Below, piece by piece: positions 4,160 to 34,736 of a DNA stretch of 35,803 nt (within the stretch, counting starts at the first letter, position 1; every line of letters begins with the position of its first letter). The notes beneath the pieces are model-generated. The model did no database searches, was not told the origin of the DNA, and saw only the letters and a program-made list of their open reading frames with translations. A program made the position numbers and the translations under genes. The DNA is from Paludibacteraceae bacterium (GTDB lineage Bacteria; Bacteroidota; Bacteroidia; Bacteroidales; Paludibacteraceae), in the NCBI GenBank assembly GCA_017430235.1, contig JAFRNH010000091.1:1-35803 (forward strand). Direction: 5' to 3'.

Positions 4160-10973
<6,814 letters not shown>

Positions 10974-10994
10974 ACAGTTCTATTTTAGGGGTAA

Positions 10995-13574: not shown

Positions 13575-13620
13575 GGCGTTTTATGGTTTTTTAATGTTCA
13601 GTTTTGTTTGTTTATCGGTG

Positions 13621-13628
13621 CGAAAATA
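13621..13628 (-). promoter_or_regulatory. Candidate -7 element of the GH141-GH95-GH2 operon
   Basis: The minus strand reads TATTTTCG, one mismatch from TAnnTTTG, 46 bases before the ATG at 13574. It lies in the 241-base divergent region shared with the GH43 gene. No -33 element is obvious at standard spacing. Confidence 0.4.
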
Positions 13629-13753
13629 ATTAGATATTAGCAAGGTAAAGGGGAAAAATTGGTCATACTATAAAATTTTTGTTTCACAATTATTTCGACA
13701 TAATTTTACTAAAAAAAGGTCATTTTATTATAGAGAAAGCTTATGGGAAAATT

Positions 13754-13761
13754 TATTTTTG
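13754..13761 (+). promoter_or_regulatory. -7 promoter element TATTTTTG of the GH43 gene
   Basis: Exact TAnnTTTG match 54 bases before the ATG at 13816. Together with the element at 13621-13628 it makes the region divergently transcribed, so the GH43 gene and the GH operon could share a regulator. Confidence 0.5.
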
Positions 13762-13815
13762 TCATCGGAAAACTATATGAAAATTATAAGAAACAACAAC
13801 TAAACTATATGAAAT

Positions 13816-17781: not shown

Positions 17782-17799
17782 AATTAATGATTAGAAGCC

Positions 17800-20085: not shown

Positions 20086-21087
20086 TCATCGATAATTAAA
20101 AGAGATAGGTAAGAGACTTCGACACCTGACCGCTTCACCCTTCTGTATGCCCGGTTTCCATTTGGGCATGGATTTCACCAGACGCACTGCTTCCTTATCT
20201 ACGGCAGGATCTATACCTCTCTCTACTTCCACGTTCGTAATAGAACCATTCTTTTCAACAACAAAAGAGACAAAGACCTTGCCTTTGAAACAAACATCAC
20301 CTGCAAGAGGATAGCGTAAGTTCTTTTTTATGAATGTCATCAATGCCTCTTTCCCTCCTGGAAATTGGGGAGCCTCATCCACTTTCGATGACTTCCAGAT
20401 CTTTTCAGATGGCTTACCTACAATTTTATCCTCAATCTCTTTCACTCGTTCTGGGGTGTAGAATTCTAACGTGACACGAGTATTCTGCAACTGTTTCGTT
20501 ACATTTTGTGGATTGAGTGTTGCAGGTTCTTCCCATCCACAACCAATCGTTTTGATTCTTGTGCTGTCCGCCCCTTTCCCTGCTAGAAAATTACGTAGAT
20601 GTTTTGCTCCGTGTTCCGACAGTTTTAAATTATAATCAAAACTTCCTACTCCTATACCATCCGTATGTCCCACAATCAAGAATGTATCATTGGGAAACTT
20701 CGAGATGAACTCAGCCATCTCTTCCACCTGAATCATATTTGCTGGAGGAGGTCCCACCACTCCCATTGTAAAGTCATTATATTCCCATTGAAACTTTTGT
20801 TGGATGAGAGAATCTTCTGTCAACGATTCCTGACCTTTTGCCTCTTGACAAGCCACCATGGTAGAGAGACCTGCAGCAATCCCGACAATTTTGAGCGCCT
20901 TACCCTTTTTCGCTTTACTGGCTAATTGCATTTCAATGTATTGGCGTTCACGCTCGCAGACCGGACATGTACCTGCACACTCCCCCTTGTGCGTACACAC
21001 AGCGGGTGTGTAAGCAATCCCGTTAGCGTCTGCTACTTGCTGTCGGACTTTCCTAAGAATCTCACATGTCTTTTTTCCTTTGGGCAT
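20086..21087 (-). CDS. Cys-module protein with OmpA and TonB C-terminal domains
   Basis: This 333-residue protein shares its N-terminus with the downstream neighbour: C8, C31, C37, C41, C44 in CEILRKVRQQVADANGIAY and CTHKGECAGTCPVCE. A hydrophobic stretch (about 64-80) ends GLSTMVAC, which resembles a lipobox although it lies 60 residues in. Next is an OmpA-like peptidoglycan-binding domain (about 118-210; VGHTDGIGVGSFDYNLKLSE, NTRVTLEF), then a TonB_C domain (about 235-333; PQFPGGKEALMTFIKKNLRY, MPKWKPG). OmpA plus TonB_C in one chain suggests anchoring to the cell wall while contacting an outer-membrane receptor. It precedes the other TonB gene by 48 bases on the same strand, so they are probably co-transcribed and arose by duplication. 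Confidence 0.85.
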   Translation of the reverse strand: MPKGKKTCEILRKVRQQVADANGIAYTPAVCTHKGECAGTCPVCERERQYIEMQLASKAKKGKALKIVGIAAGLSTMVACQEAKGQESLTEDSLIQQKFQWEYNDFTMGVVGPPPANMIQVEEMAEFISKFPNDTFLIVGHTDGIGVGSFDYNLKLSEHGAKHLRNFLAGKGADSTRIKTIGCGWEEPATLNPQNVTKQLQNTRVTLEFYTPERVKEIEDKIVGKPSEKIWKSSKVDEAPQFPGGKEALMTFIKKNLRYPLAGDVCFKGKVFVSFVVEKNGSITNVEVERGIDPAVDKEAVRLVKSMPKWKPGIQKGEAVRCRSLLPISFNYR

Positions 21088-21220: not shown

Positions 21221-21349
21221 AGTGGTGGAAGGTTTCATAGTTCTGTTGGATTTTTGCACTTTCTTGTGATATCAGGGTGAGACTTATAAATTCACCACTA
21301 AAACAATAATTCGTATGAATTGTGGGGCGATGAGTTTTATCGAACCCAC
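21221..21349 (+). promoter_or_regulatory. Structured 5' leader of the amidohydrolase gene
   Basis: AGTGGTGGAA (21221-21230) can pair with TTCACCACT (21291-21299), enclosing about 60 bases. The 3' arm can instead pair locally (GGTGA with TCACC, 21276-21295), giving two exclusive folds. A second hairpin (GTGGG 21322-21326 with CCCAC 21345-21349, CGAT with ATCG inside) ends 15 bases before the ATG, where it could block translation. I matched no known riboswitch class. Confidence 0.35.
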
Positions 21350-21364
21350 TTAAATTTTATAAAA

Positions 21365-22606
21365 ATGAAGTCACTATTTTTGAAAGACGTGTTGTTGAAT
21401 GGCACACGCACCAATATAAGAATTACGGGCAACCGTTTTTCTTCAATTAGTACTACAATCACACCTGAGCAAGACGATGAGGTGATTGAGGCAAGTCAGT
21501 TTGCTATCGTTCCACCTTTTTACAATGCACATACCCATGCAGCCATGTCTTTATTAAGAGGATATGCAGATGATATGCCGTTATTCCCATGGTTGAATGA
21601 TCATATCTGGCCGTTTGAGGCGAAGATGACCTCCGATGATATCTATATTGGTACTCGTCTGGCCATTTTGGAGATGATAAAATCGGGTACGGTCTTTTAT
21701 AATGACATGTATTGGATGATGGATGCGGTATGGAAGGCGACAGACGAGATGGGTGTTCGTGCTTGTTTGGGTGTCACGATGATGGATTTCCTTGGAGAAG
21801 AGAAGCTTCGTAAGAGTTTCGATTTGATAGAGGAGTATCAGGAGAAGTCGCCACTAATTAGTATGTCGGTGGCTCCTCATGCACCTTATACAGTGAGTGA
21901 TAAGCTGTGGGTGCGTTGTGCAGAGTATGCGAAGCAACACAATACGATTCTTCATTTTCATTTGTCGGAGACGGAAAAGGAGGTGGCTGATTGTGTGGCA
22001 GAACATGGATTGACTCCAGTTCGCTGGTTGGATAGCTTGGGAGTTCTCTCCTCTAATTGTGTAGCCGCTCATGTGGTGCATGTGGATGAGGAAGAGATTC
22101 AGATATTGAAAGAGAGAGGCGTTGCCATTGCCCATAATCCTGTGTCTAATATGAAATTGGCATCAGGCTATTTTAAATCATTACAGATGCAGGAGAGCGC
22201 CAATAAGGTGATGATTGGAACGGATGGTTGTTCGTCTAACAACAATTTGGATATGCAGGAGGAGACGAAGTTTGCTGCGATGATAGCGAAGTGCAACTAC
22301 GGACCAGAGACATTGCCAGTCGATGTCTTAAAGCAGTGGTCGCTGACCAATGCTCCTAAGGTGTTCGGCATAGATGCGGGTGAAATCGCTGTCGGAAAAT
22401 TGGCCGATGCCCTGCTACTGGATATGAATAACGAGCGTTTTGTTCCGAATTTCAATATGTATTCCAACTGGTTCTATGCTTCTAATTGTGAGGCAATCGA
22501 TACGATGATTTGTAATGGTAAGATCTTGATGAGAAACCGTAAGGTGCAGGGAGAGGATGAAATCATCGAAACGGCTAAGAAGTGTAGTATGAAGTGGATG
22601 AAATGA
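21365..22606 (+). CDS. Amidohydrolase, 5'-methylthioadenosine/S-adenosylhomocysteine deaminase type
   Basis: I place the start at the ATG at 21365 (MKSLFLKDVLLNGTRTNIRI, 413 residues); a longer reading needs a TTG. It is a metal-dependent TIM-barrel amidohydrolase of the ATZ/TRZ (MtaD/SsnA) group: N-terminal beta domain, metal ligands H56 and H58 in NAHTH, H199 and E202 in HFHLSETEKEV, H236 in AAHVVHV and D287 in GTDGCSSNNNLDM. Family length is about 410-440. Such enzymes deaminate MTA or SAH to the inosine forms, part of methyl-group and purine salvage. Cytoplasmic. It precedes cysK by 130 bases on the same strand, consistent with linked sulfur-amino-acid metabolism, though cysK has its own promoter. 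Deaminase specificity is inferred; other aminohydrolases of the family are possible. Confidence 0.85.
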   Translation: MKSLFLKDVLLNGTRTNIRITGNRFSSISTTITPEQDDEVIEASQFAIVPPFYNAHTHAAMSLLRGYADDMPLFPWLNDHIWPFEAKMTSDDIYIGTRLAILEMIKSGTVFYNDMYWMMDAVWKATDEMGVRACLGVTMMDFLGEEKLRKSFDLIEEYQEKSPLISMSVAPHAPYTVSDKLWVRCAEYAKQHNTILHFHLSETEKEVADCVAEHGLTPVRWLDSLGVLSSNCVAAHVVHVDEEEIQILKERGVAIAHNPVSNMKLASGYFKSLQMQESANKVMIGTDGCSSNNNLDMQEETKFAAMIAKCNYGPETLPVDVLKQWSLTNAPKVFGIDAGEIAVGKLADALLLDMNNERFVPNFNMYSNWFYASNCEAIDTMICNGKILMRNRKVQGEDEIIETAKKCSMKWMK

Positions 22607-22736: not shown

Positions 22737-23684
22737 ATGTCGCAAATAACAAAACAACTGACAGACCTTATTGGCAATACCCCTATTCTGGAATTAAATA
22801 AATATTCCAAGCAAAAGGGGATTAAGAAAAGTATTCTTGCTAAAATAGAGTATTTTAATCCGGGAGGCAGTGTGAAAGATCGTATAGCACTTGCTATGAT
22901 AGAAGATGCTGAAAAGAGGGGGGTGTTGAAACCTGGAGCAACGATTATTGAGCCAACGAGTGGTAATACGGGTGTGGGACTGGCTTTTGTTTCTGCTGTT
23001 AAAGGATATAAATTGATTCTTACCATGCCGGAGACGATGAGTATTGAACGTCGTAATTTGGTGAAAGCCTATGGTGCTACAGTTGTACTCACAACGGGTA
23101 AGGACGGCATGAAGGGAGCCATTGCAAAGGCAGAGGAATTGCGTGATCAAACGCCTGGAAGTGTTATATTACAGCAATTTGAAAATGCTGCGAACCCTGC
23201 TAAACATTATGCTACGACAGGTCCGGAGATTTGGCAGCAAACCGATGGAAAGATCGATATCTTTGTAGCGGGTGTAGGTACGGGAGGTACAGTATCGGGT
23301 GTCGCAAAGTATTTGAAAGAGAAAAATCCAAACATACAGATCATTGCAGTGGAACCTAAGTCGTCTCCTGTCTTGAATGGGGGAAATAGTGGTCCTCATA
23401 GAATTCAGGGTATTGGCGCTGGATTCATTCCTAAGACGTATGATGCTACGCTCATTGATGAGGTGCTTGACGTGGAGAATGATGATGTAATCCGAGCAGG
23501 TCGTGAATTGGCGGCACAGGAAGGTCTCTTAGTTGGAATCTCCAGTGGAGCTGCTGCTTATGCTGCTTCTGTTGTGGCACAACGTCCAGAGAACCAAGAC
23601 AAAACCATCTTGACATTGTTCCCAGATACTGGAGAACGATATTTATCCACTGTTTTATACGCATTTGAAGAGTATCCTCTATGA
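22737..23684 (+). CDS. cysK: Cysteine synthase A (O-acetylserine sulfhydrylase)
   Basis: This 315-residue fold-type II PLP enzyme makes L-cysteine from O-acetylserine and sulfide in the cytoplasm. The pyridoxal lysine is K47 in NPGGSVKDRIA; the substrate-binding loop TSGNTG is at 74-79; the phosphate-binding loop is GVGTGGTVSGV (about 178-188); the end LFPDTGERYLST is also typical. Length is normal for CysK (about 305-325). It has its own promoter and a strong terminator. A palindrome lies ahead of the promoter and may be its operator. CysM or cystathionine synthase are less likely given the length and motif set. Confidence 0.95.
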   Translation: MSQITKQLTDLIGNTPILELNKYSKQKGIKKSILAKIEYFNPGGSVKDRIALAMIEDAEKRGVLKPGATIIEPTSGNTGVGLAFVSAVKGYKLILTMPETMSIERRNLVKAYGATVVLTTGKDGMKGAIAKAEELRDQTPGSVILQQFENAANPAKHYATTGPEIWQQTDGKIDIFVAGVGTGGTVSGVAKYLKEKNPNIQIIAVEPKSSPVLNGGNSGPHRIQGIGAGFIPKTYDATLIDEVLDVENDDVIRAGRELAAQEGLLVGISSGAAAYAASVVAQRPENQDKTILTLFPDTGERYLSTVLYAFEEYPL

Positions 23685-23780: not shown

Positions 23781-24977
23781 TTAGTTTTCTTGTAGGTCTT
23801 TGTTTGTCATGGCGCATACACAACTGTCGCTCCACACGTTCACGGCTGTCTCTACCATGTCAATGATGGTGTAGATAGGCAATATGGCTCCTAATACTAC
23901 TACAGGAGCATCAATACCTGACATCAGAGAGAGGGTTAGGAAATAGCATCCCATTGGTACACCTGCGTTGCCGATTGCAGCGACAACAGAGATAAACAAC
24001 CATGTTAACATGGTGGCCCAGGTGATTTCAATACCTCCTTGTTGCATCACGAAAAGAGAAGTAACAAGGATAAAGGCGGCACATCCGTTCATATTGATGG
24101 TGGTACAGATAGGTAGGACGAAACGTGCTATCTTAGATTGAACTCCCAGTTGTTGCTCTGCCGTCGACATGGTCACAGGCAATGTGGCGGCACTACTTTT
24201 GGTAAACAATGCCATCAAGACAGCTGGCGACATCTTCCTTAATGTGTGTATGGGATTTAATCCTCGTATCAAAAGGAACAACGGTAATACAATAAAAAAT
24301 TGTATGAGGTTGCCACCCAAGACCACAATCACATATTTACCTAATGAATCGGCTATTGTTCCTGCTGTTAATTGGGATGACAATTGAACGGCAAAAGCCA
24401 CGATACCTACGGGTAAGATCCAAATCAATCCACGAATTAGGGTGAAGAGAATCTCTTGGAATCCATGAAGTAGATGAAGTACGCTTTTCTTCTGATCGCT
24501 TTCAGGAATGCGAGTAAGTGCGATTCCAACGGCTGCTGCGATTAAGAGAAGCGATAGTACATTCCCCTCTAAAAAGGGTTTCACCACATTATTGGGAATG
24601 ATGGATAAGAGATGGTCCGAATAGCTCAGTTGTGATGCATTCGCCACTGCCTGATTCTCTTGATTCAAAGCATCAACAGGCATCTGTTCTGGCGCTATGA
24701 TGACATAGAGTAACATACCTACCGTGGCTGCTACAATTGTTGTTAACAATGTATAAGTGATGGTATGTCCGAAAATACGTCCTGTCTCTTTTCCTTTTCC
24801 CAGTGAAGCCAAAGTGGTGGTCACAGCTAAAAAGATGGTTGGAACAGCCAATAGCTGAAATAGCCTAACATAGATAGAGGCTACAAAGTTGGCCGTATTG
24901 TCTATCCAACCTATGTGTAATAAACCAAGGATGGCACCCAATAATAGGGCGCCAATCCAAATGAAGTGTTGTCTCAT
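23781..24977 (-). CDS. Dicarboxylate/amino-acid:cation symporter (DAACS family)
   Basis: This 398-residue inner-membrane protein has the GltP/GltPh fold with about eight membrane helices and two re-entrant hairpins. Signatures: FTKSSAATLPVTM (Ser-rich HP1 tip), CTTINMNGCAAF (NMDGT-type motif in TM7, here NMNGC), AAIGNAGVPMG (HP2) and DMVETAVNVWSDSCVC (TM8, with the substrate-binding D..T/N..D region). These carriers import glutamate, aspartate, C4-dicarboxylates or Ser/Thr with Na+ or H+. The NMNGC variation suggests altered specificity. It is the last gene of the SusCD operon, 15 bases after the URO-D-like gene, so it probably brings the processed small product into the cytoplasm. Substrate unknown. 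Confidence 0.9.
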   Translation of the reverse strand: MRQHFIWIGALLLGAILGLLHIGWIDNTANFVASIYVRLFQLLAVPTIFLAVTTTLASLGKGKETGRIFGHTITYTLLTTIVAATVGMLLYVIIAPEQMPVDALNQENQAVANASQLSYSDHLLSIIPNNVVKPFLEGNVLSLLLIAAAVGIALTRIPESDQKKSVLHLLHGFQEILFTLIRGLIWILPVGIVAFAVQLSSQLTAGTIADSLGKYVIVVLGGNLIQFFIVLPLFLLIRGLNPIHTLRKMSPAVLMALFTKSSAATLPVTMSTAEQQLGVQSKIARFVLPICTTINMNGCAAFILVTSLFVMQQGGIEITWATMLTWLFISVVAAIGNAGVPMGCYFLTLSLMSGIDAPVVVLGAILPIYTIIDMVETAVNVWSDSCVCAMTNKDLQEN

Positions 24978-24992
24978 AAATAATTGTAATGG

Positions 24993-26036
24993 TTATTTTT
25001 TGTGTGTTTGTCTCCAAGTATGTGCATAATCGATAACAGCACGAAGTTTATCCCAATCAGTGTCTCCTGGTACGGTGCAATCTGCGCCAAGGATAAAGTT
25101 TGGCGATGCGTTTTCCAATACCTTGTCCACCTCTTTCTTAATCTCTTCGATGCTACCTTTAGTGATCACTCCCAATCGTTCAAGTCCTCCGAAGATTGGT
25201 CTTCCGAAACGTTTTTGAGCCTCTTTCAGATTGAGAACAGATCCATCTGAAAATTTCAATGGCACATTGATAATGCTTGCTGGATAATCGGCAAATGCGT
25301 AGAGTGCCTCTGCATTTTTAAATGGTGTTCCATAATCGCAGATGTGTAGGATGTTAATGATTCCAATTTCGTTGGCTACTTCAGATACGTATTTGTCCCA
25401 TGGACGAACTTGTTCCTTCCAAATTTTAGCGGAGAGGGAATTACCATCATCACCTTGACTGGAGACATAGAATCCGTCGGCACCATGCTTGCGAGCGGCA
25501 CGAAGATAATTTTCAATGGAAAGAGCCAAGTTCTTGATAGCCTTTCCGAATGCAACAGGATTCTCTTCTGCCAGTTTCTTCAGGTCCTTGTCACGTCCTA
25601 AGGTCTGATGAGCCAAAGCTAATGGGGAATAAACCGTAGGAAGGATGAATGCTTCGTTGCCAAATTCACGAGCCAAGTCTTCAATGACAGCGACTTGAGG
25701 TGCGAAGAAATCTTCTCCATAGACGGGAACTTTTTCCCAATCCTTTCCTGAATTGATTTCGATGCGTGGAACTACGATTTCATAGAACACCTTCACAAAA
25801 TCCATATCTGTGGCACGGAAGAAATCTTTGTGGTCTTGTACCGCTTTGCGTCCTAACTTGTTCTCGAAGTGAAGGAAGAATGCAGCGGGAACGTAATCAT
25901 TCGGACGACTTTGATCGAGCACTTGAAGGATGCGTTCACGACGATTATTAGCGACTTGCTGCTGTGCAGCGATATTTTCTAAACTTATGGATGCCAATAG
26001 TGCTAAGGCAATAAATTTTGCGTAAATCTTCTTCAT
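24993..26036 (-). CDS. Exported uroporphyrinogen decarboxylase/MtaA-superfamily protein
   Basis: This 347-residue protein has a clear Sec signal peptide (KFIALALLASISLENIAA before QQQ) ahead of a URO-D-superfamily barrel. The true URO-D Arg motif (RQAGRY) is absent. Instead it has H231-x-C233 in ILHICDYG and C320 in ILGADCTVPGD, matching in order and spacing the zinc-binding HxC...C set of MtaA/MtbA corrinoid-protein methyltransferases (H237, C239, C316 in MtaA, from memory). FGGLERLG (about 282-289) occupies the usual glycine-rich position. Family members are normally cytoplasmic, so a signal peptide is odd and suggests a periplasmic role. It is fourth in the PBP-SusC-SusD operon, 52 bases after SusD. 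The reaction is unknown: demethylation or another zinc-thiol chemistry is conceivable; no cofactor partner is visible. Confidence 0.82.
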   Translation of the reverse strand: MKKIYAKFIALALLASISLENIAAQQQVANNRRERILQVLDQSRPNDYVPAAFFLHFENKLGRKAVQDHKDFFRATDMDFVKVFYEIVVPRIEINSGKDWEKVPVYGEDFFAPQVAVIEDLAREFGNEAFILPTVYSPLALAHQTLGRDKDLKKLAEENPVAFGKAIKNLALSIENYLRAARKHGADGFYVSSQGDDGNSLSAKIWKEQVRPWDKYVSEVANEIGIINILHICDYGTPFKNAEALYAFADYPASIINVPLKFSDGSVLNLKEAQKRFGRPIFGGLERLGVITKGSIEEIKKEVDKVLENASPNFILGADCTVPGDTDWDKLRAVIDYAHTWRQTHKK

Positions 26037-26088
26037 ATTATCTCTGTTTTTTTATTTGATTAATATTCTAAATGTGATATTTAATTAA

Positions 26089-27675
26089 TTATTCGTATTC
26101 TGGTCCGTAAGGGCCTTCTCCGGATTCTCCGCTATATCCCCAGTTTTGTTTCAATCGTGGGTTGAGGGTGATTTGTTCTTGTGGCAACGGAAGCAGATAG
26201 TTCTTTTTTGAGACATTCTGCGCCTTGGTTGTTTTTGTGCCAAGCGTCTCTGTATCGCTTGGTGTGTGTTCCTTCACATATTTGACAAGGATATGCCAGC
26301 GAATCAAATCAAACCAACGTTGTCCTTCGAGTACGAACTCTAATCGGCGTTCCTCGCGTAAGCGTTCACGGAACTCATTTTGTGACAGACCACTTAAATC
26401 CAAATCAGATCCGTCTGATGGCTTTTCTTGTACATTCTTGTGTGGATTCCAATAAGCACGGCGACGAACTTGATTGATGGCTTCGTAAGCGCTGGCGGTT
26501 GGACCATTCAACTCGTTCTCTGCTTCTGCTTTGATTAACAAAATCTCAGCATAACGGATGATGGTCGTGTTGGTGGATTGACCGGCTGAATTACCAGAAG
26601 AAGCTGGGTTGGCATAGTTGATTGTATCGATGTACTTGCGGAATCGAGGAATGGTGAAGACATAATCGGTTCCTGTATTGGGATTTGGAAGTCGTTTAGC
26701 CCAAGATCCGTCACGTCGTTGATCGAGAGGGTCACTCTCTTCGTAATACTTATCACTGGTGGCAAGCAGTACGGGTTCTGCATCATCCCAATTGGTGGCG
26801 AAGGTACAGTGTCCGGTCACATTACCATTGATGCCGCGTTCGTGTTCGATAGAGAAGATATGCTCCTTTCCGTTCTTCTTATTCACAGCCCAATTGTCGA
26901 GAAAGTTGTCAAGCAGTTGGTATTTACCAGAGGCAATAACCTTGTCTGCGTAGTTGATGGACTTCTGATAAAACTCCTTTTGGTTGGTTCTGCCTTTATC
27001 TGACAATGTTTGGGCCCATGTTAAGTAAACTTTTGAAAGTAGGGCTGACGCTGCTAGGCTGGAAGCCTTGCTGTCGAGGGTGGTATAGTCTGCGGGTAGT
27101 TTCTCTCCAGCAGAAAGATCCTCTACGATCTGGTCGTATACCTCGTCTATGCTGTTGCGTGCAGCACCTTCTCCTTCTCCGTCGTGTAGTACGATGGGTA
27201 CACCACCGAAGTAACGTACTAAGTTGAAGTACATGAATCCACGTAAGAAACGAGCCTCATTGATGAAGTTTGCCTTGGTTTTTTCATCGAGGAAATCGGC
27301 GCTGCTTACTTTGTCAATCACCACATTGGCACGATTGATGGCGATGTAATGTTCCTTCCATGCATAATCCACAAAGAGATTGGTTGGTTGTACGGCAAAG
27401 TTGGACAATTCGCGGATATGAGCAGAATTGGTTTGGGCACCTGCCTTCACATAATCTGTCTGCAAATCGTTGATGTATATACTTTGGTTGTTGAACATTC
27501 CGTAGAATCCGTCGACCGTAAACTCATGGTAGATACCATTGACGGCGGTCTCAATATCTCGTTTGTTACTGTAGAAAGTCTCTTTGTCAATAGAACTGAG
27601 AGGATTCAGTTCCAAATCTGCGCAGCTGCTAAGCGTCAATGTCGCAGCAAATATGTATATCAAATTCTTATTCAT
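26089..27675 (-). CDS. SusD/RagB-family outer-membrane lipoprotein
   Basis: I use the ATG at 27675 (MNKNLIYIFAATLTLSSCAD, 528 residues); the longer reading starts at TTG. C18 in LSSC is the lipidation site. The sequence follows the SusD/RagB pattern: ADLELNPLSSIDKETFYSN, NRANVVIDKV, NEARFLRGFMYFNLVRYFGG VPIVL, ASALLSKVYLTWA (TPR helices) and the C-terminal EERRLEFVLEGQRWFDLIRW, RYAEILLIKAEAENEL. SusD-like proteins form a lid on the SusC barrel and bind the ligand at the cell surface. It starts 11 bases after the SusC stop. The ligand cannot be read from the sequence; no glycoside hydrolase is in this operon, so it may not be a glycan. Confidence 0.95.
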   Translation of the reverse strand: MNKNLIYIFAATLTLSSCADLELNPLSSIDKETFYSNKRDIETAVNGIYHEFTVDGFYGMFNNQSIYINDLQTDYVKAGAQTNSAHIRELSNFAVQPTNLFVDYAWKEHYIAINRANVVIDKVSSADFLDEKTKANFINEARFLRGFMYFNLVRYFGGVPIVLHDGEGEGAARNSIDEVYDQIVEDLSAGEKLPADYTTLDSKASSLAASALLSKVYLTWAQTLSDKGRTNQKEFYQKSINYADKVIASGKYQLLDNFLDNWAVNKKNGKEHIFSIEHERGINGNVTGHCTFATNWDDAEPVLLATSDKYYEESDPLDQRRDGSWAKRLPNPNTGTDYVFTIPRFRKYIDTINYANPASSGNSAGQSTNTTIIRYAEILLIKAEAENELNGPTASAYEAINQVRRRAYWNPHKNVQEKPSDGSDLDLSGLSQNEFRERLREERRLEFVLEGQRWFDLIRWHILVKYVKEHTPSDTETLGTKTTKAQNVSKKNYLLPLPQEQITLNPRLKQNWGYSGESGEGPYGPEYE

Positions 27676-27686
27676 TATCAATCAGT

Positions 27687-30600
27687 TTAAAGAGTTATTT
27701 TTACACCAAATAATACTGTTTTTGCAGCAGGGTATGCTCCGTAGTCTACACCTTGATAAAGAGAACTGGTCTCATCAATACCATTACGATTAGCTTCAGG
27801 ATCATAACCAGAATAGCGCGTGATGGTGAAGAAGTTTTGTAGTGAAACATAGAGATTCAGTTTGGCATCCTTGACAATCTGTGGGATCGGTAGGGTGTAA
27901 CCCAACTGGATGTTACGGAACTTTAAGTAACTTGCATCTTCTACAAAACGATCATCAGCATAGATGGAAGTGGCGCTTGATGCCTTTTGAATGGTATTGC
28001 TTGGATTATCTTCTGTCCATCGGTCTGCCACCTCAGCCAACGGATTGTAATAGTATCCATTACCACGAGTCAGACGACAGGCAAGAGCGTTGAAGAGTTT
28101 ATTTCCATGACTACCACTTACATTAACAAATAAATCCCATCTCTTATATGATAATTTGGTGCTGAAACCATAGGTGAATTTAGGTTGAATGCTTCCCAAT
28201 TTCACACGGTCTTGTTCGTTAACCACTCCATCGCCATTGACATCTTCAAACTTAGGGTTACCTGGTTCTACGGACGAAATGGTCTGGGTTGGAAGTGCAT
28301 TCAAGTCTTCATCTTTTTGGATGATACCCTTGAATCGATAGCCATAGAAGGTACCCAATGGCTCACCTTTTTTCACAATCAATGGATTGATATACTGCAA
28401 TGTACCTACTGATGCGAAGTCTGGTAAGAAGTAATCTAACTCACCCAAGCTTGTGACTTCATTTTTGTTGTGTGCAATGTTTGCATTGACAGTCCACCTC
28501 CATGATCGTTTATCAATAATCGTACCTCCTACTTCTAACTCAAATCCTTTGTTGACGACAGATCCTACGTTACGTAACACGGTAGAGAATCCTGTCACCT
28601 GTTCGATAGGAACGTTTAGCAACAAATCTTTTGTCTTTTTGTAGTATGCATCGAATGTAATGGTCAAGCGATCCTTGAAGAATCCTGTGTTGACACCTGC
28701 ATTATATGAGGTGGTGGTTTCCCATTTCAAATCCTCATTTGATTTGTTTTCGATGACATATCCGATGGCTTGTTGTCCATTTACGATCACAGTGCGTGGC
28801 ACAACGTTGGCGGCATATTGATAATCACCAATCTCTTGGTTACCTACCGTTCCGATAGATGTACGCAATTGGATGAAATCTACATTCTTACCTAGGTGAA
28901 TCCATTTCTCTCGGTCGAGGTTCCATGACAATCCTAATGAAGGGAACAAGCCCCAACGGTGATCTTTTGCGAAACGACTCGAACCATCAGCACGAAGGGT
29001 CAAGGAGGCGTTATAACGCGAATCATAACTATAGTTCAAACGACCAATCCATGATTGCAAAGTGGAAATGTAGTGAGCACTGGTGGAAGGAAGAGTCGTG
29101 GCAGCTGCCTTTAGATTGTCATATCCAGTGGCGTCGTTGCTGAAACCATACGCGGTTGTGGCAAAATTACTACGATCAGTCTTTTGCGCAGTGTATCCAA
29201 ACAATGCAGTGAAGGAATGAATATTCTTGAAGATGTTACTGTAGGTTGCGGTATACTCTGATTGCCAAGTGACAGTGCTAGCTTCTCCTACAGAGGCATA
29301 TCCGTTGTTGGCAAGACCGCCTGTTGTATACGAAGGTGCATAATAGTTCTGTCGTGTGTTCGAGAGATCTGCGCCTATACTAGCTTTCAATTTCAAGTGT
29401 GGAATGACAGTCCACTCTGCAAATCCACTACCGATGAAACGATTATTATTTGTCTCTGCCTTTGTATTTTCCAAGTCACTGATAGGATTTCCTACCTTTC
29501 CGTTATATATATCAACACTGGTTGGAGTAGGGTCGTAGTTGTACGAACCATCTGCGTTATAAATAGCAGTGTATGGTGTATGTGAGATAGCTGCCACCCA
29601 CGGACTTGGTTGGAACATGCTACCGCTGTTGTCGGCTACACCTGATACCTTGTTGTAGGCTCCATTAGCATTCACCCCAACCAATAAGGTTTTAAACACA
29701 TTACGTTCATAGTTGACACGTCCGGTGAAACGTTTCATGCCTGTTCCTTTCACGATTCCATCCTGATCTTTGAAACTACCACTGACGCTGTAGCGTGAGG
29801 TTTCGTCACCACCTACCACAGAGATTTGATGCTCTTGTTGGAACCCAGTACGTAAGGCTTCGCTCTGCCAATCGTAGCTCTCTTTGGGATCTTCCAAATC
29901 ATAACCTAATTCTCCGTTTTTGTATAGTTCGTGCCAGATATCCGTCCATTGTTGTGCATTGAGGAAATCAAGTTTCTTCCCAATTGAACTCCAACCGAAA
30001 GAGGCGTTGTAACTAATATTGTTGTGTCCTTTAGAACCTTTCTTAGTTGTGATGATGATCACACCATTCGCACCACGTGTACCATATATGGCCGTTGCGC
30101 TCACATCCTTCAAAACCTGAACACTTTCAATATCGGCAGGATTTAAAAAGGCTAATGGGTCGAGCGATGCATCGCTTGATTTCGCTCCAGTACGTGTTGA
30201 GGCTGGATCGTTATAGACGATGAAACCATCAATCACATAAAGTGGTTCATTACCTCCTGTGATAGAGTTACCTCCACGGATTCGGACAATGCTGGCGGCA
30301 CCAGGCTGACCAGAAGTTTGTGTGACATTCAGTCCTGAGACAGCTCCCTGCAGGGCACTCTCGACAGATGTGTTGTTTTGACGAAGAGGGTCTTTGCTAA
30401 CAGTTGATATACTACTTGTTAGTTCCAACCTTTTTTGCTCTCCATATCCAACTACGACCACCTCGTCGAGTACATCTGCATTATCAACAAGACTAATTTC
30501 TAAGGGCTCCTCAAAGTCATAGACATCTACGTCTAATGGACGATAACCGATAAACTCTACACGGAGTGTTAGTGGTGCCTCTTTGTTGGTTGACAAACTA

Positions 30601-30785
30601 AATTTTCCATCCAAGTCGGTCAGTGCTCCAACGCCCTTCTCGTTTTTTACTGATACTGTCGCCCCAACAAGGGTTTCGCCAGAGCGAGCATCCTTGACCA
30701 CTCCCGTGATCACATTTTCTGCAAAAATCCAAAGCGGACTTGCCAAAAATAGAATTGTAAGTATGTATTTCCAATAATTCTTCAT
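27687..30785 (-). CDS. SusC/RagA-family TonB-dependent outer-membrane transporter
   Basis: I start at the ATG at 30785 (MKNYWKYILTILFLASPLWI, 1032 residues), which opens a signal peptide; the upstream extension MIRRWLRFKR is out of keeping with it. Order: carboxypeptidase-regulatory-like domain (ITGVVKDARSGETLVGATVS, about 25-100), TonB box (DEVVVVGYGEQKR), plug (SGQPGAASIVRIRGGNSITG, EPLYVIDGFIV, VLKDVSATAIYGTRGANGV) and the 22-strand barrel ending VLFGVKITL. Family length is about 1000-1100. It imports a ligand captured by SusD using TonB energy; the two Cys-module TonB proteins at 19294-21087 are possible partners. It follows the PstS-like gene by 16 bases. Confidence 0.95.
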   Translation of the reverse strand: MKNYWKYILTILFLASPLWIFAENVITGVVKDARSGETLVGATVSVKNEKGVGALTDLDGKFSLSTNKEAPLTLRVEFIGYRPLDVDVYDFEEPLEISLVDNADVLDEVVVVGYGEQKRLELTSSISTVSKDPLRQNNTSVESALQGAVSGLNVTQTSGQPGAASIVRIRGGNSITGGNEPLYVIDGFIVYNDPASTRTGAKSSDASLDPLAFLNPADIESVQVLKDVSATAIYGTRGANGVIIITTKKGSKGHNNISYNASFGWSSIGKKLDFLNAQQWTDIWHELYKNGELGYDLEDPKESYDWQSEALRTGFQQEHQISVVGGDETSRYSVSGSFKDQDGIVKGTGMKRFTGRVNYERNVFKTLLVGVNANGAYNKVSGVADNSGSMFQPSPWVAAISHTPYTAIYNADGSYNYDPTPTSVDIYNGKVGNPISDLENTKAETNNNRFIGSGFAEWTVIPHLKLKASIGADLSNTRQNYYAPSYTTGGLANNGYASVGEASTVTWQSEYTATYSNIFKNIHSFTALFGYTAQKTDRSNFATTAYGFSNDATGYDNLKAAATTLPSTSAHYISTLQSWIGRLNYSYDSRYNASLTLRADGSSRFAKDHRWGLFPSLGLSWNLDREKWIHLGKNVDFIQLRTSIGTVGNQEIGDYQYAANVVPRTVIVNGQQAIGYVIENKSNEDLKWETTTSYNAGVNTGFFKDRLTITFDAYYKKTKDLLLNVPIEQVTGFSTVLRNVGSVVNKGFELEVGGTIIDKRSWRWTVNANIAHNKNEVTSLGELDYFLPDFASVGTLQYINPLIVKKGEPLGTFYGYRFKGIIQKDEDLNALPTQTISSVEPGNPKFEDVNGDGVVNEQDRVKLGSIQPKFTYGFSTKLSYKRWDLFVNVSGSHGNKLFNALACRLTRGNGYYYNPLAEVADRWTEDNPSNTIQKASSATSIYADDRFVEDASYLKFRNIQLGYTLPIPQIVKDAKLNLYVSLQNFFTITRYSGYDPEANRNGIDETSSLYQGVDYGAYPAAKTVLFGVKITL

Positions 30786-30801
30786 AATCCTTAATTCGTT
30801 T

Positions 30802-31746
30802 TTACTTATTGTTCTGTGCAGTATAGGTTGATGTAATATTGATCTTTTGAATCTCAGCCACCTTCTGATCAAGGTTCAACAAGCCATACTCATGGTTGTA
30901 TTGTACTCCATTGGTAAGTATCCAACTAAGGAAACGATTGATGGCATCGTCATTGCCGTTATAACTGAGTCCTACCTTTCCAATTGTAATTTTATCATTT
31001 CGCTCGGTCTCAAGTGATTTGATTATATCATCGAGAGATGAACTATTGGTAAAGTTGCCTGCTACTTCTTTCTTTAAATCTAATCCTATGAGAGTTAGGT
31101 TATTTTTTAAATGACGACTCTTCAAATCGAATATGTTGGGTAGAGTGTTAAAACTAATACCAAAAGGATCTTTAGACAAAGCAGTATTTAAAAATAGATC
31201 GTCGCCTGATATACGTTTACCTCGGAAGTTGTCAACTACCTCGCCATAATGCTGTGCGAAAATATGGGCGATAGAGCTTTTGTTACTTCCACTGTATATA
31301 ACAAGACGTTCGAACTGCTTGTTCTTCCGTAAGTTCTCCTCGTAGTCCTCGTTGAAGAAAAAGATCTGTTTGAGTGTCTTTGCATTTAGATGCTTCCCTT
31401 CAAGGATTTTGGCAGCTTCCGACTGATTGGCTGTAATAGGAAGAATGGCATATTCTCCAAAGTAGACAACCTTGTCATTGGCATTCTGACCCATCTGCTC
31501 GTCAGACACCACAACCATCATATCAATTTGTTTACCATTATTGTTCCCCTTCACTATCTCAAAGTGTATGTTAGGCTCTACCTTTGAGTACTCCTGAATC
31601 CATTTCTCCAACAATGGCTGTGCAAATTTTGGACTTTTTATGTAAATGTTCTCTGATCCGGATCCGTTTGATCCAGTCTCTTCTGCTGCGACGTTGCCAA
31701 AGATTGCAATTGCAAGCACAATGGTTAATAAATACTTTGTCTTCAT
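30802..31746 (-). CDS. PstS-like periplasmic binding protein (PBP type 2)
   Basis: This 314-residue protein has a signal peptide (MKTKYLLTIVLAIAIFGNVAA, then EE). The mature start NIYIKSPKFAQPLLEKWIQE resembles the PstS/PBP2 opening (strand, then helix bound to the anion), and YSGSNKSSIAHIFAQHYG (151-168) resembles the PstS loop that binds phosphate or another oxyanion. ILPITANQSEAAKIL followed by LNAKTLKQIFFF matches the hinge region of the family. It is the first gene of the operon, with no ABC permease or ATPase nearby, so it works without its own ABC transporter and may hold ligand delivered through SusC. Ligand unknown; phosphate-like or carboxylate is a guess. Confidence 0.75.
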   Translation of the reverse strand: MKTKYLLTIVLAIAIFGNVAAEETGSNGSGSENIYIKSPKFAQPLLEKWIQEYSKVEPNIHFEIVKGNNNGKQIDMMVVVSDEQMGQNANDKVVYFGEYAILPITANQSEAAKILEGKHLNAKTLKQIFFFNEDYEENLRKNKQFERLVIYSGSNKSSIAHIFAQHYGEVVDNFRGKRISGDDLFLNTALSKDPFGISFNTLPNIFDLKSRHLKNNLTLIGLDLKKEVAGNFTNSSSLDDIIKSLETERNDKITIGKVGLSYNGNDDAINRFLSWILTNGVQYNHEYGLLNLDQKVAEIQKINITSTYTAQNNK

Positions 31747-31788: not shown

Positions 31789-31796
31789 CAAAATTA
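31789..31796 (-). promoter_or_regulatory. -7 promoter element of the PBP-SusCD operon
   Basis: The minus strand reads TAATTTTG, an exact TAnnTTTG match 42 bases before the ATG at 31746. The palindromes at 31842 and 31933 lie upstream of it, where an activator would bind. Confidence 0.55.
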
Positions 31797-31841
31797 AATG
31801 TGTTGTATAACATATAAAATACCATTCGAACGGCATTTCAT

Positions 31842-31859
31842 ATCGCAAACGTTTGTGAT
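31842..31859. promoter_or_regulatory. Near-perfect 18-bp palindrome, candidate operator
   Basis: ATCGCAAACGTTTGTGAT is symmetric apart from one base pair (G/T), with a perfect CAAACGTTTG core. It is centred about 55 bases upstream of the operon -7 element and about 125 bases upstream of the response regulator start. Confidence 0.55.
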
Positions 31860-31932: not shown

Positions 31933-31945
31933 ACAAATTGTTTGT
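31933..31945. promoter_or_regulatory. Second inverted repeat ACAAA-ttg-TTTGT
   Basis: Shares the CAAA/TTTG half sites of the palindrome at 31842 but with a three-base centre. It lies 29 bases before the response regulator start and after its candidate -7 element, a position suited to autorepression. Confidence 0.35.
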
Positions 31946-31973
31946 AAGATTGCATAAGAAAATTGAACGAAAT

Positions 31974-32615
31974 ATGAATTTTATCATAGCGGATAATCAG
32001 GAACTGACGAGGTATGCAATCGAACGGTTGCTTGACGAGTTTGATGACAAAAAAATAGCCTATGCTTCATGCAAGGCTGAACTGGTAGGAAGAATGCAAG
32101 AAAATGAGCGTAGTGTAATCATTCTCGACTATACGCTATTTGATTTTTTCGACGTAGATAACCTACTTATTGTTACGCAACGTATTCCTACAACTAATTG
32201 GATTTTACTTAGCGATGATCTCACGGAATCGTTTTTACGTTCCGTGGTCTACCAAAGCCATAATATCAGTATTCTCTTTAAAGATGCTTCGTTGAGGGAG
32301 GTGAAAGATGCTATTCAAATGGCTGTACGGGGTCAGCGCTATATCAGCCAACGTATCACTGAGATTTTATTGTCACAACAATCTCGTGAAACCGCCATCT
32401 CCTCTACTTTAACACCAACAGAGGTAGAGGTGATTCGCTCTATTGCACAAGGCAAAACAACAAAAGAAATCGCGGCTGAACGCTACTCTAGTATTCATAC
32501 CATCAATACTCATCGAAAGAATATATTTAGGAAACTGGGCGTGAACACTGCTCATGAAGCCATTAAGAGAGCTATTCGATCGGGACTGATTGATGAATCA
32601 GAATATTTCATATAG
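31974..32615 (+). CDS. LuxR/NarL-family response regulator
   Basis: I start at the ATG at 31974 (MNFIIADNQELTRYAIERLL, 213 residues). The receiver domain has D7, phospho-acceptor D52 in IILDYTLFD, S80 and K103 in ILFKDAS, so phosphorylation looks possible. The C-terminal LuxR helix-turn-helix spans about 145-205: LTPTEVEVIRSIAQGKTTKE, then IHTINTHRKNIFRKLGV. No sensor kinase is in the window, so the partner is encoded elsewhere or the domain is used without one. It diverges from the PBP-SusCD operon across a 227-base region with palindromes and is probably its regulator. A strong hairpin terminator follows. Confidence 0.9.
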   Translation: MNFIIADNQELTRYAIERLLDEFDDKKIAYASCKAELVGRMQENERSVIILDYTLFDFFDVDNLLIVTQRIPTTNWILLSDDLTESFLRSVVYQSHNISILFKDASLREVKDAIQMAVRGQRYISQRITEILLSQQSRETAISSTLTPTEVEVIRSIAQGKTTKEIAAERYSSIHTINTHRKNIFRKLGVNTAHEAIKRAIRSGLIDESEYFI

Positions 32616-32953: not shown

Positions 32954-34036
32954 TTAACACCATTTATTTCTATCAATCACTTCCTCTTTCTTTTCCTCCA
33001 ATTTAGAAGAAGAGGTGTTCTGAATCTTCAAATCCTCATAAGGAACATCGAGGATGTTGTCTTCAGAGAATGAAGAGAATGAACCTTTCTGACTATATTT
33101 AGAGATGATCTTGTTCACCTTCTCAACGTTCATGGCACTCTCCAAATTGTAATTTTCCAAAATGCTGTTGGAGTCGTCCAAGAAGCGTTCCATTTCAGCA
33201 ACACTCAAATCGATCGTGTTGGTGATGTGCTCGATAGCCATCTCCTCCTCAAGACTCTTAGAATCTCCACTTAAAATGTTAGAGATAGATTTGAGGGCAC
33301 TTCTTTGAGCCTCTGCTGCTTCGTATGCATCTTTTGTTCTCTTTAACTCAAGGGTTGAACGCTCTACCTTTGCCTTGGCAATGATCTCCAAACGTTCCAT
33401 CACCTCTTGATACTTTTCAGAAGTGGCGATACGCTGTTTTTGATTCTCAATGATTTTGTCAAGTTGTGCAATATCATTGCTTAATGTGCCTACGCTCATC
33501 TCTATACGAAGTTGTTCGTTAGGATTGATACCTCCGATCTTCAAACGAGAGTTTTGAATCTTCAATTTGCTGATGTTATCGGCTTGTTGATCTTCATACT
33601 CTTGCAACTTTCTCTTCATCTTGATAAGAATTGCTTTCAAATTGGTAAGGTTCTCATGAACATTGTTCAATTTGTCTTTCATCTTTTTAATGGATTGCTC
33701 CAAAATCGAGATGGGGTCTATCTTAACAAAGATTCCAACAATCTTTCTGTTGAGCTGATACCAAAACAATGAAATCCATTTCCAGAATGATTTACTGGTC
33801 AAGACTCCTAGAATAGCAGCAATAGCCACTAATTCGGCAATGAAAATCAATGTATTCGAAGCCGCTACTATGAGCGTTGGTAATATCTTTATGAAACCAT
33901 ACCCTAAACCTGCAGCAATGGCCACTGCAGATATTTTTGCAAGTGAACCTCCTGGCAAGTTGAACAAGTCCTTGATAGAAGGTTTCTTGTTTTCTGTGTT
34001 CTCCACATTGTTGTTTGGAATTAATTCAGTATCCAT
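32954..34036 (-). CDS. Membrane-anchored coiled-coil protein of unknown function
   Basis: This 360-residue protein has a polar N-terminus (NNNVENTENKKPSIKDLFNL), two or three hydrophobic helices (about 32-81: ISAVAIAAGLGYGFIKILPT, LIFIAELVAIAAILGVLTS), an amphipathic stretch with FWKWISLFWYQLNRKIVGIF, then a long coiled coil (about 105-265: KMKDKLNNVHENLTNLKAIL onward) and an acidic/charged tail. I believe Bacteroidales homologues are labelled 'microtubule-binding protein' by automated annotation, a label without functional meaning here. The layout (membrane anchor, then PspA-like helical rod) suggests a scaffold or membrane-maintenance role, but no PspA motif is evident. It lies 7 bases after the upstream gene. 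Confidence 0.75.
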   Translation of the reverse strand: MDTELIPNNNVENTENKKPSIKDLFNLPGGSLAKISAVAIAAGLGYGFIKILPTLIVAASNTLIFIAELVAIAAILGVLTSKSFWKWISLFWYQLNRKIVGIFVKIDPISILEQSIKKMKDKLNNVHENLTNLKAILIKMKRKLQEYEDQQADNISKLKIQNSRLKIGGINPNEQLRIEMSVGTLSNDIAQLDKIIENQKQRIATSEKYQEVMERLEIIAKAKVERSTLELKRTKDAYEAAEAQRSALKSISNILSGDSKSLEEEMAIEHITNTIDLSVAEMERFLDDSNSILENYNLESAMNVEKVNKIISKYSQKGSFSSFSEDNILDVPYEDLKIQNTSSSKLEEKKEEVIDRNKWC

Positions 34037-34043
34037 ATCTCTT

Positions 34044-34736
34044 TTATATGTTTAGATTTGACATTACATTTTTATCAGTTTCTAACTTCTCGATAACAGC
34101 TTTTGCCGTGTTGATGAAGACTTGCTCGTTATGCGCAATCTCCTTTTCTGACACTTCAACTTCAGCAGTAATCTGTTTAATTTTTTCGTTGATTGCCTCA
34201 CTCTTTTTCTTCAACTCTTCAATCTGTTCCAAAATGGACTTGTTGTTACCTTCCAAAGATTGTATCTCCACTCTCTTATCCTCCACGTCCCGTTTGTACT
34301 TCTCTCTGAATTGTCTTCTACCACTCGCCAACTCCTCATTCACGAAGCCTATGTAGGTATCCACTGAGTTGACCAATGTTGTTTTGTCAAAATTGGGATA
34401 TTGAGCTTTCAACATGTTAAAAGCGGCAATGTATCGCTGATCCTTCTGAAGCCCCATCGTCTCCAAAGAGGCTGAATAGGTGATCAACTCCATCATGTCT
34501 GGTCCTGGAATGTTGCGATCCACCAACGTCTGCCATATCTTCTTCTGTATGTCCAGACTCACCTCTGTCCCTACTTCAGATGAATATGAGACGATATCTT
34601 TAGGAGCATCTTTTTGCTCCTCTTCTTTCTTTTCCTCTTTTTTTACCTTCTTCTCATCCTTCTCATTTTGCTTGGAAGAACGATTCGATGGCTGATCATT
34701 TGCTTCAGGTTTAATGAATAAATCTCTAAAACTCAT
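34044..34736 (-). CDS. Soluble coiled-coil protein of unknown function
   Basis: This 230-residue protein starts MSFRDLFIKPEANDQPSNRS, followed by a very Lys/Glu-rich linker (about 24-45), a small helical domain (about 55-125: VSLDIQKKIWQTLVDRNIPG, YIAAFNMLKAQYPNF) and a coiled coil (about 140-225: KRVEIQSLEGNNKSILEQIE onward). No signal peptide or membrane helix; presumably cytoplasmic. It is the first gene of a three-gene operon whose next member is a membrane-anchored coiled coil, so the two may assemble through their helices. Family not recognised. Confidence 0.75.
   Translation of the reverse strand: MSFRDLFIKPEANDQPSNRSSKQNEKDEKKVKKEEKKEEEQKDAPKDIVSYSSEVGTEVSLDIQKKIWQTLVDRNIPGPDMMELITYSASLETMGLQKDQRYIAAFNMLKAQYPNFDKTTLVNSVDTYIGFVNEELASGRRQFREKYKRDVEDKRVEIQSLEGNNKSILEQIEELKKKSEAINEKIKQITAEVEVSEKEIAHNEQVFINTAKAVIEKLETDKNVMSNLNI

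What the first reader, a model, noticed from the sequence alone, without database searches (positions are those of the whole stretch)
23781..31746. SusCD operon without any glycoside hydrolase: PBP > SusC > SusD > exported MtaA-like > DAACS symporter
The five genes are 11-52 bases apart on one strand, and the order traces a path: surface capture (SusD), outer-membrane import (SusC), periplasmic binding (PstS-like), periplasmic processing (MtaA-like), inner-membrane import (dicarboxylate/amino-acid symporter). The absence of CAZymes argues for a non-glycan ligand such as a modified amino acid, dicarboxylate or oxyanion conjugate. It may be an undescribed nutrient-uptake system.
Basis: inference. 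Interest (0 to 1): 0.75.

Follow-up and report, generated by a model that had tools for sequence, protein, structure and literature searches.

The report
Sulfur-scavenging SusCD uptake operon
A five-gene set of outer- and inner-membrane uptake genes in a gut-type bacterium, of a kind usually used to import sugars, seems to share its DNA control signal with the cell's cysteine-making genes, so it probably imports a sulfur-containing nutrient rather than a sugar.

Summary
The five genes are real, tightly packed and in the stated order. All five keep the order in 31 of 35 testable loci with a close URO-D relative (mostly titled Prevotella); more distant Bacteroidales keep parts.

The new evidence points to sulfur. 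In relatives a dyad, TACC-N8-GGTA, lies at fixed spacing from the promoter. In five carrier genomes the composite has 20 matches (reversed control 0): 10 before sulfur-metabolism genes, 5 before this operon, 1 before a LuxR gene, 3 before other outer-membrane receptors, 1 elsewhere. In the window a matrix from relatives puts its two best sites before cysK and this operon. Relatives also have a Met/Cys-rich upstream ORF (32 of 37; absent in the window). Neighbours include C-S lyase, cysteine desulfurase with an encapsulin shell, and ThiS/MoeB/JAB. The symporter has Glu where acidic-substrate carriers have Arg (34 of 34). The exported URO-D protein keeps the zinc-thiol triad of MtaA-type enzymes.

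Best reading: the uptake arm of a LuxR/NarL-type sulfur regulon, probably acquired horizontally. Ligand, regulator binding and URO-D reaction are inferred.

The parts
30802..31746 (-). Exported-looking protein of unknown family, possibly binding-protein-like; first gene of the operon
   Evidence: ORF; no Pfam/NCBIfam/PDB hit; a homologue lies upstream in 35 of 36 testable close loci
27687..30785 (-). SusC-type TonB-linked outer-membrane transporter (probable ATG at 30785; ORF open to 30872)
   Evidence: TIGR04056 872.6 bits, cutoff 368; closest PDB chain 8aa4, SusC homolog
26089..27675 (-). SusD-type surface lipoprotein (probable ATG at 27675)
   Evidence: PF07980 and PF14322 above cutoff; lipobox-like LSSC read from the sequence
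24993..26036 (-). Exported URO-D-family protein with MtaA-type zinc triad H231, C233, C320
   Evidence: PF01208; H 89 of 89, C 89 of 89, second C 81 of 89; profile hits methylcobalamin:CoM methyltransferase 4ay7, E 3.7e-4
23781..24977 (-). DAACS/SDF symporter with NMNGCA and DMVETAVN motifs, predicted for a neutral, cysteine-like amino acid
   Evidence: PF00375 318 bits; compared with E. coli TcyP, GltP, DctA, SstT; motif residues invariant in 34 of 34
31789..31859 (-). Candidate operator and promoter of the operon: dyad TGCC-N8-GGTA (31820-31835) 23 nt before TAATTTTG (31789-31796)
   Evidence: 18.3 bits with a 46-nt matrix from 19 relatives; maximum of 100 shuffled windows 9.4. The part from dyad 2 to the promoter element alone scores -15.4, not above shuffles
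31938..32615 (+). Divergent LuxR/NarL-type response regulator, candidate regulator (probable ATG at 31974)
   Evidence: PF00196 above cutoff, receiver PF00072 below cutoff; homologue in 12 of 12 genomes tested; dyad-promoter directly upstream of it in L164, L167, L168
22634..22651 (+). Dyad ATACCAAACATTTGGTAT upstream of cysK
   Evidence: One of 4 exact sites in the genome, the other 3 inside ORFs; best matrix hit in the window, 44.2 bits
22737..23684 (+). Cysteine synthase (CysK), same operator type
   Evidence: TIGR01139 451.9 bits, cutoff 351

Best explanation
The operon is the uptake arm of a sulfur-starvation (cysteine) regulon. When sulfur amino acids run short, a NarL/LuxR-type regulator binds the TACC-N8-GGTA dyad and activates the operon together with cysK and other sulfur genes (binding and induction inferred; the shared operator is shown). 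In most relatives a Met/Cys-rich leader peptide adds control by Cys/Met-tRNA supply (inferred; absent in the window). SusC/SusD bring an organosulfur compound through the outer membrane (inferred). The first-gene product may hold it in the periplasm (inferred). The exported MtaA-like protein uses its zinc site to bind a thiol and add or remove an alkyl group, or to free the thiol (inferred). In a few relatives exported-looking ATC hydrolase and M20 amidohydrolase finish the release of cysteine (inferred from families). The DAACS protein imports the small neutral product, cysteine or an S-substituted cysteine (inferred from residues). In the cytoplasm C-S lyases, an encapsulin-associated cysteine desulfurase, DsrE/TusA/ThiS carriers, CysK and MetY-type enzymes use the sulfur (families shown).
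For: Shared operator: 20 composite matches in 5 of 6 carrier genomes, 0 for the reversed pattern; next genes recounted: 10 sulfur-metabolism (metY, cysK, ThiS/MoeB, DsrE), 5 this operon, 1 LuxR, 3 other outer-membrane receptor genes, 1 cation-efflux-like. 31 of 37 loci with the first gene carry it at 45-47 nt. 8 of 9 group B loci examined have the dyad. Where DAACS stands apart it has its own dyad-promoter (7 loci). Window: the two best 46-nt matrix sites precede cysK and this operon. Leader ORF: 32 of 37 loci against 1 of 740 shuffles; frame kept in 31 of 32 over 11 lengths. Neighbours: PatB C-S lyase above cutoff, ATC hydrolase PF14196, M20 amidohydrolase, encapsulin shell NF041163 568 of 400 bits, also at 79% in the window's genome. 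Symporter residues. URO-D and the LuxR gene are both missing from 4 of 4 sampled congeners.
Against: No expression, binding or growth data. The window's genome has no match to the strict composite, its 4 exact dyads equal the 4 control matches, its dyad 1 before the operon is degenerate, the stretch from dyad 2 to the promoter element does not beat shuffles, and the leader ORF is absent. The genome's main sulfur island shows no operator. The encapsulin was not found in 2 of the 4 genomes with this operon that searched (G295, G299). LuxR homologues occur in 36 of 101 family genomes, URO-D in 2, so the regulator is not confined to this system. No ligand is known; no corrinoid protein is in the operon. 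ATC hydrolase/M20 genes are in few relatives and not in this operon. Three other outer-membrane receptors share the operator, two beside YtkA or HMA proteins, which could mean copper. The genomes were chosen because they carry the operon.
Confidence: 0.66

Rival explanations
1. Copper (or copper-thiolate) acquisition or defence. The Met/Cys-rich upstream ORF is a Cu(I)-sensing peptide, TonB receptors of the regulon import copper complexes, and the sulfur genes are co-induced to repair copper-damaged Fe-S clusters.
For: A receptor next to a YtkA lipoprotein scores 128 bits with the TonB-copper model TIGR01778 and an HMA-domain protein stands beside another receptor; both have the dyad in some genomes. 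Cu-sensing Cys-rich upstream ORFs are known (recalled).
Against: The TonB-copper score is far below its cutoff of 472. Ten of 20 composite sites precede sulfur-metabolism genes. No Pfam match in the operon is a copper family.
Confidence: 0.12
2. An orphan SusCD pair serving the nearby CAZyme cluster (GH2, GH95, GH141, GH43 at 4160-15879), with the other genes as passengers.
For: SusCD normally import glycans (established knowledge); the closest SusC structure is a SusC homolog; CAZymes lie about 8 kb away.
Against: A transposase and unrelated genes lie between. In close relatives the operon keeps URO-D and DAACS and in the islands read its neighbours are sulfur genes. I did not screen all flanks for CAZymes.
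Confidence: 0.06
3. Dicarboxylate, acidic amino acid or oxyanion-conjugate uptake.
For: DAACS family membership; best NCBIfam match is DctA at 128 bits.
Against: All four DAACS NCBIfam matches are far below cutoff. Glu in place of Arg at the substrate site in 34 of 34, shared with Ser/Thr carrier SstT; NGCA shared with cystine carrier TcyP rather than DGS/DGT. TcyP itself keeps the Arg. No Pst relationship detected.
Confidence: 0.07
4. Tetrapyrrole or corrinoid scavenging: the URO-D protein acts on a porphyrin or methylcorrinoid brought in by SusCD.
For: URO-D family; the nearest solved structure by profile is a methylcobalamin:CoM methyltransferase, followed by uroporphyrinogen decarboxylases.
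Against: No Rfam family at gathering threshold in the window, so no cobalamin riboswitch seen. The thiol-zinc triad is kept. Half of the sites sharing the operator precede sulfur-metabolism genes.
Confidence: 0.05

Closest known systems
SusCD/RagAB nutrient uptake systems
   Same: SusC TonB-linked barrel plus SusD lid lipoprotein, adjacent genes
   Different: No CAZyme in the operon; operator shared with sulfur genes; exported URO-D and DAACS partners
MtaA/MtbA/CmuA methyltransferases (URO-D family)
   Same: URO-D family and His-x-Cys...Cys zinc-thiol triad (role of the triad recalled)
   Different: Carries an export signal; below the curated cutoffs; no corrinoid protein in the operon; up to three tandem copies in relatives
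TcyP cystine and SstT serine/threonine carriers (DAACS)
   Same: NGCA motif as in TcyP; Glu-Thr-Ala-x-Asn as in SstT
   Different: Only 28% and 23% identical; this combination is in neither E. coli protein; TcyP has Arg where this has Glu
Sulfur-starvation encapsulin SrpI with cysteine desulfurase (PMC8049743 and PMC8346489, passages)
   Same: Family 2 shell beside a SufS-type gene in the islands of relatives; shell present elsewhere in the window's genome
   Different: The starvation data are for family 2A in Synechococcus, where knockouts had no growth phenotype; the shell here passes both 2A and 2B models, 2B higher. By term search TonB and SusC do not occur in the second paper and TonB not in the first
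Pseudomonas ATC to cysteine pathway (PMC10821248, passages)
   Same: ATC hydrolase family gene followed by an amidohydrolase gene in 5 loci
   Different: Here both look exported and sit in SusCD operons of relatives, not in the window; the M20 subfamily (TIGR01891) may differ from the Pseudomonas enzyme

Membership tests
SusCD uptake system | SusC-type TonB receptor adjacent to SusD-type lipoprotein | tested here: met
   TIGR04056 872.6 of 368 bits; PF07980 141.5 of 23.1 bits; 11-base gap
Polysaccharide utilization locus | CAZymes in the operon | tested here: not met
   None among the five genes
MtaA/CmuA methyltransferase | Zinc-thiol triad H-x-C...C | tested here: met
   H 89 of 89, C 89 of 89, second C 81 of 89; that this is the zinc site is recalled
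MtaA/CmuA methyltransferase | Score above the curated family cutoff | tested here: not met
   TIGR01463 43.2 bits, cutoff 235.4
MtaA/CmuA methyltransferase | Corrinoid protein partner | tested here: not met
   None among the five genes; the rest of the genome was not searched for one
Acidic-substrate DAACS (GltP/DctA) | Substrate-binding Arg of the last helix | tested here: not met
   Glu in 34 of 34 sequences; position recalled from GltPh and aligned
PstS-type binding protein | Detectable PBP-superfamily homology | tested here: inconclusive
   PBP_like_2 in 1 of 31 at E 0.021; hhalign 6%; structure prediction unavailable
Member of a sulfur regulon | Operator shared with sulfur-assimilation genes | tested here: met
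   In relatives; in the window by the 46-nt and 73-nt matrices only
Member of a sulfur regulon | Induction by sulfur limitation | not testable with these tools
   No expression data
Amino-acid attenuation leader | Short translated ORF with regulatory codons ahead of the operon | tested here: inconclusive
   Met/Cys-rich ORF in 32 of 37 relatives, frame kept in 31 of 32; codon positions differ about equally; absent in the window, where the best ATG ORF has 3 Met/Cys in residues 2-26
NarL-type regulation | Regulator binds a 7-2-7 TAC-type inverted repeat | not tested
   Dyad matches the recalled NarL layout; binding not tested
Family 2 encapsulin with cysteine desulfurase (island of relatives) | Shell above cutoff and SufS-type cargo gene adjacent | tested here: met
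   L167: NF041163 568.3 of 400, NF041162 428 of 380, TIGR01979 547.4 of 475.1 bits; the dedicated cargo model NF041166 699.9 of 800, so below its cutoff

The most novel reading that the evidence does not exclude
A SusCD importer dedicated to organic sulfur that works with extracytoplasmic sulfur chemistry: an exported zinc-thiol transferase of the MtaA class frees or dealkylates a cysteine conjugate in the periplasm, a cysteine-type DAACS carrier takes up the product, and the chain feeds cytoplasmic desulfurases, in several carriers one that lies beside an encapsulin shell gene. In most relatives control is double, by a NarL-type regulator and by a Met/Cys-rich leader peptide.
Probability: 0.25. 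Interest if true: 0.85.

Novelty: new variant of a known kind. Interest (0 to 1): 0.72.

Why it matters
SusCD pairs are among the most numerous transporters of gut Bacteroidota and are usually assumed to serve glycans (general knowledge). A SusCD operon wired to cysteine genes would show that members of the family scavenge sulfur, and would place an MtaA-type enzyme outside the cytoplasm, where I know of no role for it. The operator and leader sequences give a direct handle for predicting which orphan SusCD pairs serve sulfur.

Tried and rejected
Rejected: viral origin (a close-relative scan of viral contigs found none); a plasmid system (5 plasmid records with URO-D relatives at 25-30%); tRNAs or Rfam elements at gathering threshold in the window; a PstS relationship by PDB profile, whose only hits were chance matches at E 0.27. 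The first URO-D alignment used the wrong strand for L004 and was redone. The ATC hydrolase search of the window's genome found nothing, but none of 14 control genomes rang, so absence is not shown. The first leader-ORF scan of the window demanded a stop before the first gene and so could have missed it; the check was repeated without that demand. Equal differences at the three codon positions do not support coding of the leader; frame and composition do; its Cys codons also lie in predicted hairpins in the leaders folded (10 folded), so a structure-only reading stays open. Group C relatives (URO-D under 44.5%; Chloroflexota, Acidobacteriota, Cytophagaceae and others by title) have none of the other four genes (0 of 18 complete loci). 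Literature, one open-access library, listings only except where passages are cited: searches (4 papers; 0; 15 of 30 listed; 3; 20 of 1,129 listed; 12 of 18; 4; 8; 8 of 15), 103 (10 of 203; 'susc' also matches 'susceptible'). None of the listed titles describes SusCD uptake of organic sulfur; because lists were capped this does not prove it unpublished. PMC1779556 (passages) describes ThiS/E1/JAB/cysteine synthase operons.

After a recount I lowered the main confidence from 0.70 to 0.66 and raised the copper rival from 0.10 to 0.12, since only 10 of 20 operator sites precede sulfur-metabolism genes and 3 precede other receptors.
Full report
What is there. The five minus-strand genes exist as described, with probable gaps of 16, 11, 52 and 15 bases if likely ATG starts are used for SusC (30785) and SusD (27675). 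Divergently upstream lies a LuxR-type response regulator (31938-32615), and downstream on the plus strand a cysteine synthase (22737-23684) and an amidohydrolase of the MTA/SAH-deaminase or chlorohydrolase type (21320-22606; NCBIfam models shown all below cutoff).

Conservation. URO-D of this kind is rare: 3 of 295 genomes sampled over the order and 2 of 101 over the family. A genome scan with an alignment of four URO-D homologues found 180 relatives; the best 80 were kept, giving 78 loci. Of these, 42 have a URO-D at least 80% identical, mostly titled Prevotella or Prevotellaceae, several from ruminant stomachs. In this group the other genes lie in place in 41 of 42 (SusD), 37 of 38 (SusC), 35 of 36 (first gene) and 34 of 38 (DAACS) testable loci, and all five in 31 of 35; the misses are L059 (three genes) and DAACS in L006, L007, L015 and L022. 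In ten group B loci (URO-D 44.5-60%; Tannerellaceae, Dysgonomonadaceae and other Bacteroidales by title, one Chloroflexi-titled MAG) SusD is in place in 6 of 9, SusC in 6 of 8, the first gene in 3 of 7, DAACS in 1 of 7, all five in 1 of 5. In 26 more distant loci none of the other four is found. URO-D occurs in 1-3 copies per close locus.

Horizontal transfer. RpoB of the window's genome is 77% identical to that of four carrier Prevotella (868 aa), which share 94-98% among themselves; yet URO-D is 81-86%, SusC 75-80% and SusD 70-81% identical to theirs. DAACS (68-77%) and the first gene (39-55%) are not closer than RpoB. URO-D is missing from 4 of 4 sampled congeners and so is the LuxR gene at E 1e-40, although LuxR homologues occur in 36 of the 101 family genomes. 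Joint arrival of operon and regulator is thus likely, not proven.

Regulatory DNA. Upstream of the operon in relatives lies the dyad TACC-N8-GGTA, followed at 45-47 nt by TAnnTTTG, in 31 of 37 loci with the first gene. The composite gave 20 matches in five of six genomes and none for its reversed control; the window's genome had none. All six were picked because they carry the operon. A recount of the next gene gives: metY 1, cysK 3, ThiS or MoeB 3, DsrE 3 (10 sulfur-metabolism genes), this operon 5, LuxR 1, a second SusC 1, a YtkA-receptor pair 1, a receptor with an HMA protein 1, and a cation-efflux-like gene 1. The dyad alone is less specific: 4, 11, 5 and 11 sites against 4, 2, 3 and 5 control sites in four genomes, many inside ORFs. 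In group B, 8 of 9 loci examined have the dyad (a pattern allowing one alternative base in each half) before SusC, the first gene or URO-D; L054 has none and L053 lacks the usual spacing. With 22-25 nt spacing the strict composite occurs 14 times in 2.5 Mb of locus sequence, both strands counted: six before SusC, the first gene or URO-D, seven directly before a DAACS gene standing apart from URO-D, and one (L015) near a contig end.

In the window, a 46-nt matrix from 19 relatives gives its two best sites before cysK (22634, 44.2 bits) and before this operon (31859 minus, 18.3 bits); the best of 100 shuffled windows reached 9.4. With the full 73-nt matrix the scores are 26.5 and -9.4, against a best of -14.4 in 50 shuffles. 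The block from dyad 2 to the promoter element alone does not beat shuffles for either. The exact cysK dyad is one of four in the genome, the other three inside ORFs. The sulfur island on another contig of the same genome showed no such site.

Leader ORF. In 32 of 37 relatives a Met/Cys-rich ORF (7-14 of residues 2-26; 1 of 740 shuffles reached 7) lies ahead of the first gene and, except in L026, overlaps it. Its start keeps the same frame relation to that gene in 31 of 32 over 11 different lengths. Codon-position counts do not add support. The window has no such ORF.

Neighbouring genes. In L167 the order is LuxR, a Cys/Met PLP enzyme, a PatB-type protein, CysK, DsrE, an encapsulin shell, a SufS-type protein, ThiS, MoeB and JAB directly before the operon; L168 has LuxR, the PLP enzyme, PatB, CysK, DsrE, a TusA, the shell, SufS, MoeB and JAB (families). 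PatB was tested in L035 (473 of 340 bits), the shell in L167 (568 of 400 bits). The shell is at 79% in the window's genome and 89% in G296, but not found in G295 and G299, which also carry the operon. In the window's genome ThiS, MoeB, DsrE, JAB and SufS homologues stand around it. A family 2A encapsulin with cysteine desulfurase cargo was reported to be induced on sulfur starvation, without a knockout growth phenotype (PMC8049743, passages). After URO-D, an ATC hydrolase family gene is followed by an M20 amidohydrolase gene in five loci (one representative of each of two ATC clusters scanned); ATC is converted to cysteine in Pseudomonas (PMC10821248, passages).

Protein clues. The DAACS protein has Glu at the position of the acidic-substrate Arg, as SstT has, and NGCA as TcyP has; the Glu and the N-G-C residues are invariant in 34 of 34 sequences, window included. 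A TcyP-like cystine carrier is on record in Campylobacter (PMC8015009, search listing and start of abstract). The URO-D protein keeps the zinc-thiol triad; the eight exceptions at the third position, all Asp, are diverged extra copies in multi-copy operons. By a hydropathy rule 56 of 57 group A URO-D proteins have a signal-like N-terminus; in group B the rule passed 5 of 12, though several begin with Tat-like motifs by eye; in group C 7 of 19.

Conclusion. The shared operator, leader composition, neighbours and symporter residues agree on sulfur. Shown: gene order, shared DNA signals in relatives, a weaker version of them in the window, and family membership. Inferred: ligand, regulator binding, leader function and the URO-D reaction.

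Noticed in passing
4160-15879: CAZyme cluster: GH2 with CBM6, GH95 with CBM6, GH141-like with CBM6, and GH43 with CBM6; not linked to the finding.
   Followed up: no
16043-18492: PD-(D/E)XK transposase, an ORF without a Pfam family, and an Imm11-like gene.
   Followed up: no
20086-21087: A protein combining an OmpA domain with a TonB C-terminal domain, a pairing that struck me as unusual.
   Followed up: no
32954-34736: Two adjacent genes without a significant family, coiled-coil-like by weak matches, near the LuxR gene.
   Followed up: no
L110:6883-9887 and L112:8851-11272: Two further TonB receptors, beside a YtkA lipoprotein and an HMA-domain protein, carry the same dyad-promoter; possible copper link.
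   Followed up: partly
L162:9793-14498: A second SusC/SusD pair (SusC about 45% identical to the nearest operon SusC) under the same operator in the genome of P. aff. ruminicola Tc2-24.
   Followed up: partly
L020:7190, L021:8902, L023:8894, L024:11085, L034:11070, L037:11070, L041:803, L046:8410: Diverged extra URO-D copies in eight loci replace the third zinc ligand Cys by Asp, suggesting a divided role.
   Followed up: no
L103:2564-3511: A cation-efflux-like gene in Prevotella sp. tf2-5 has the dyad-promoter, facing away from the metY-cysK promoter.
   Followed up: no
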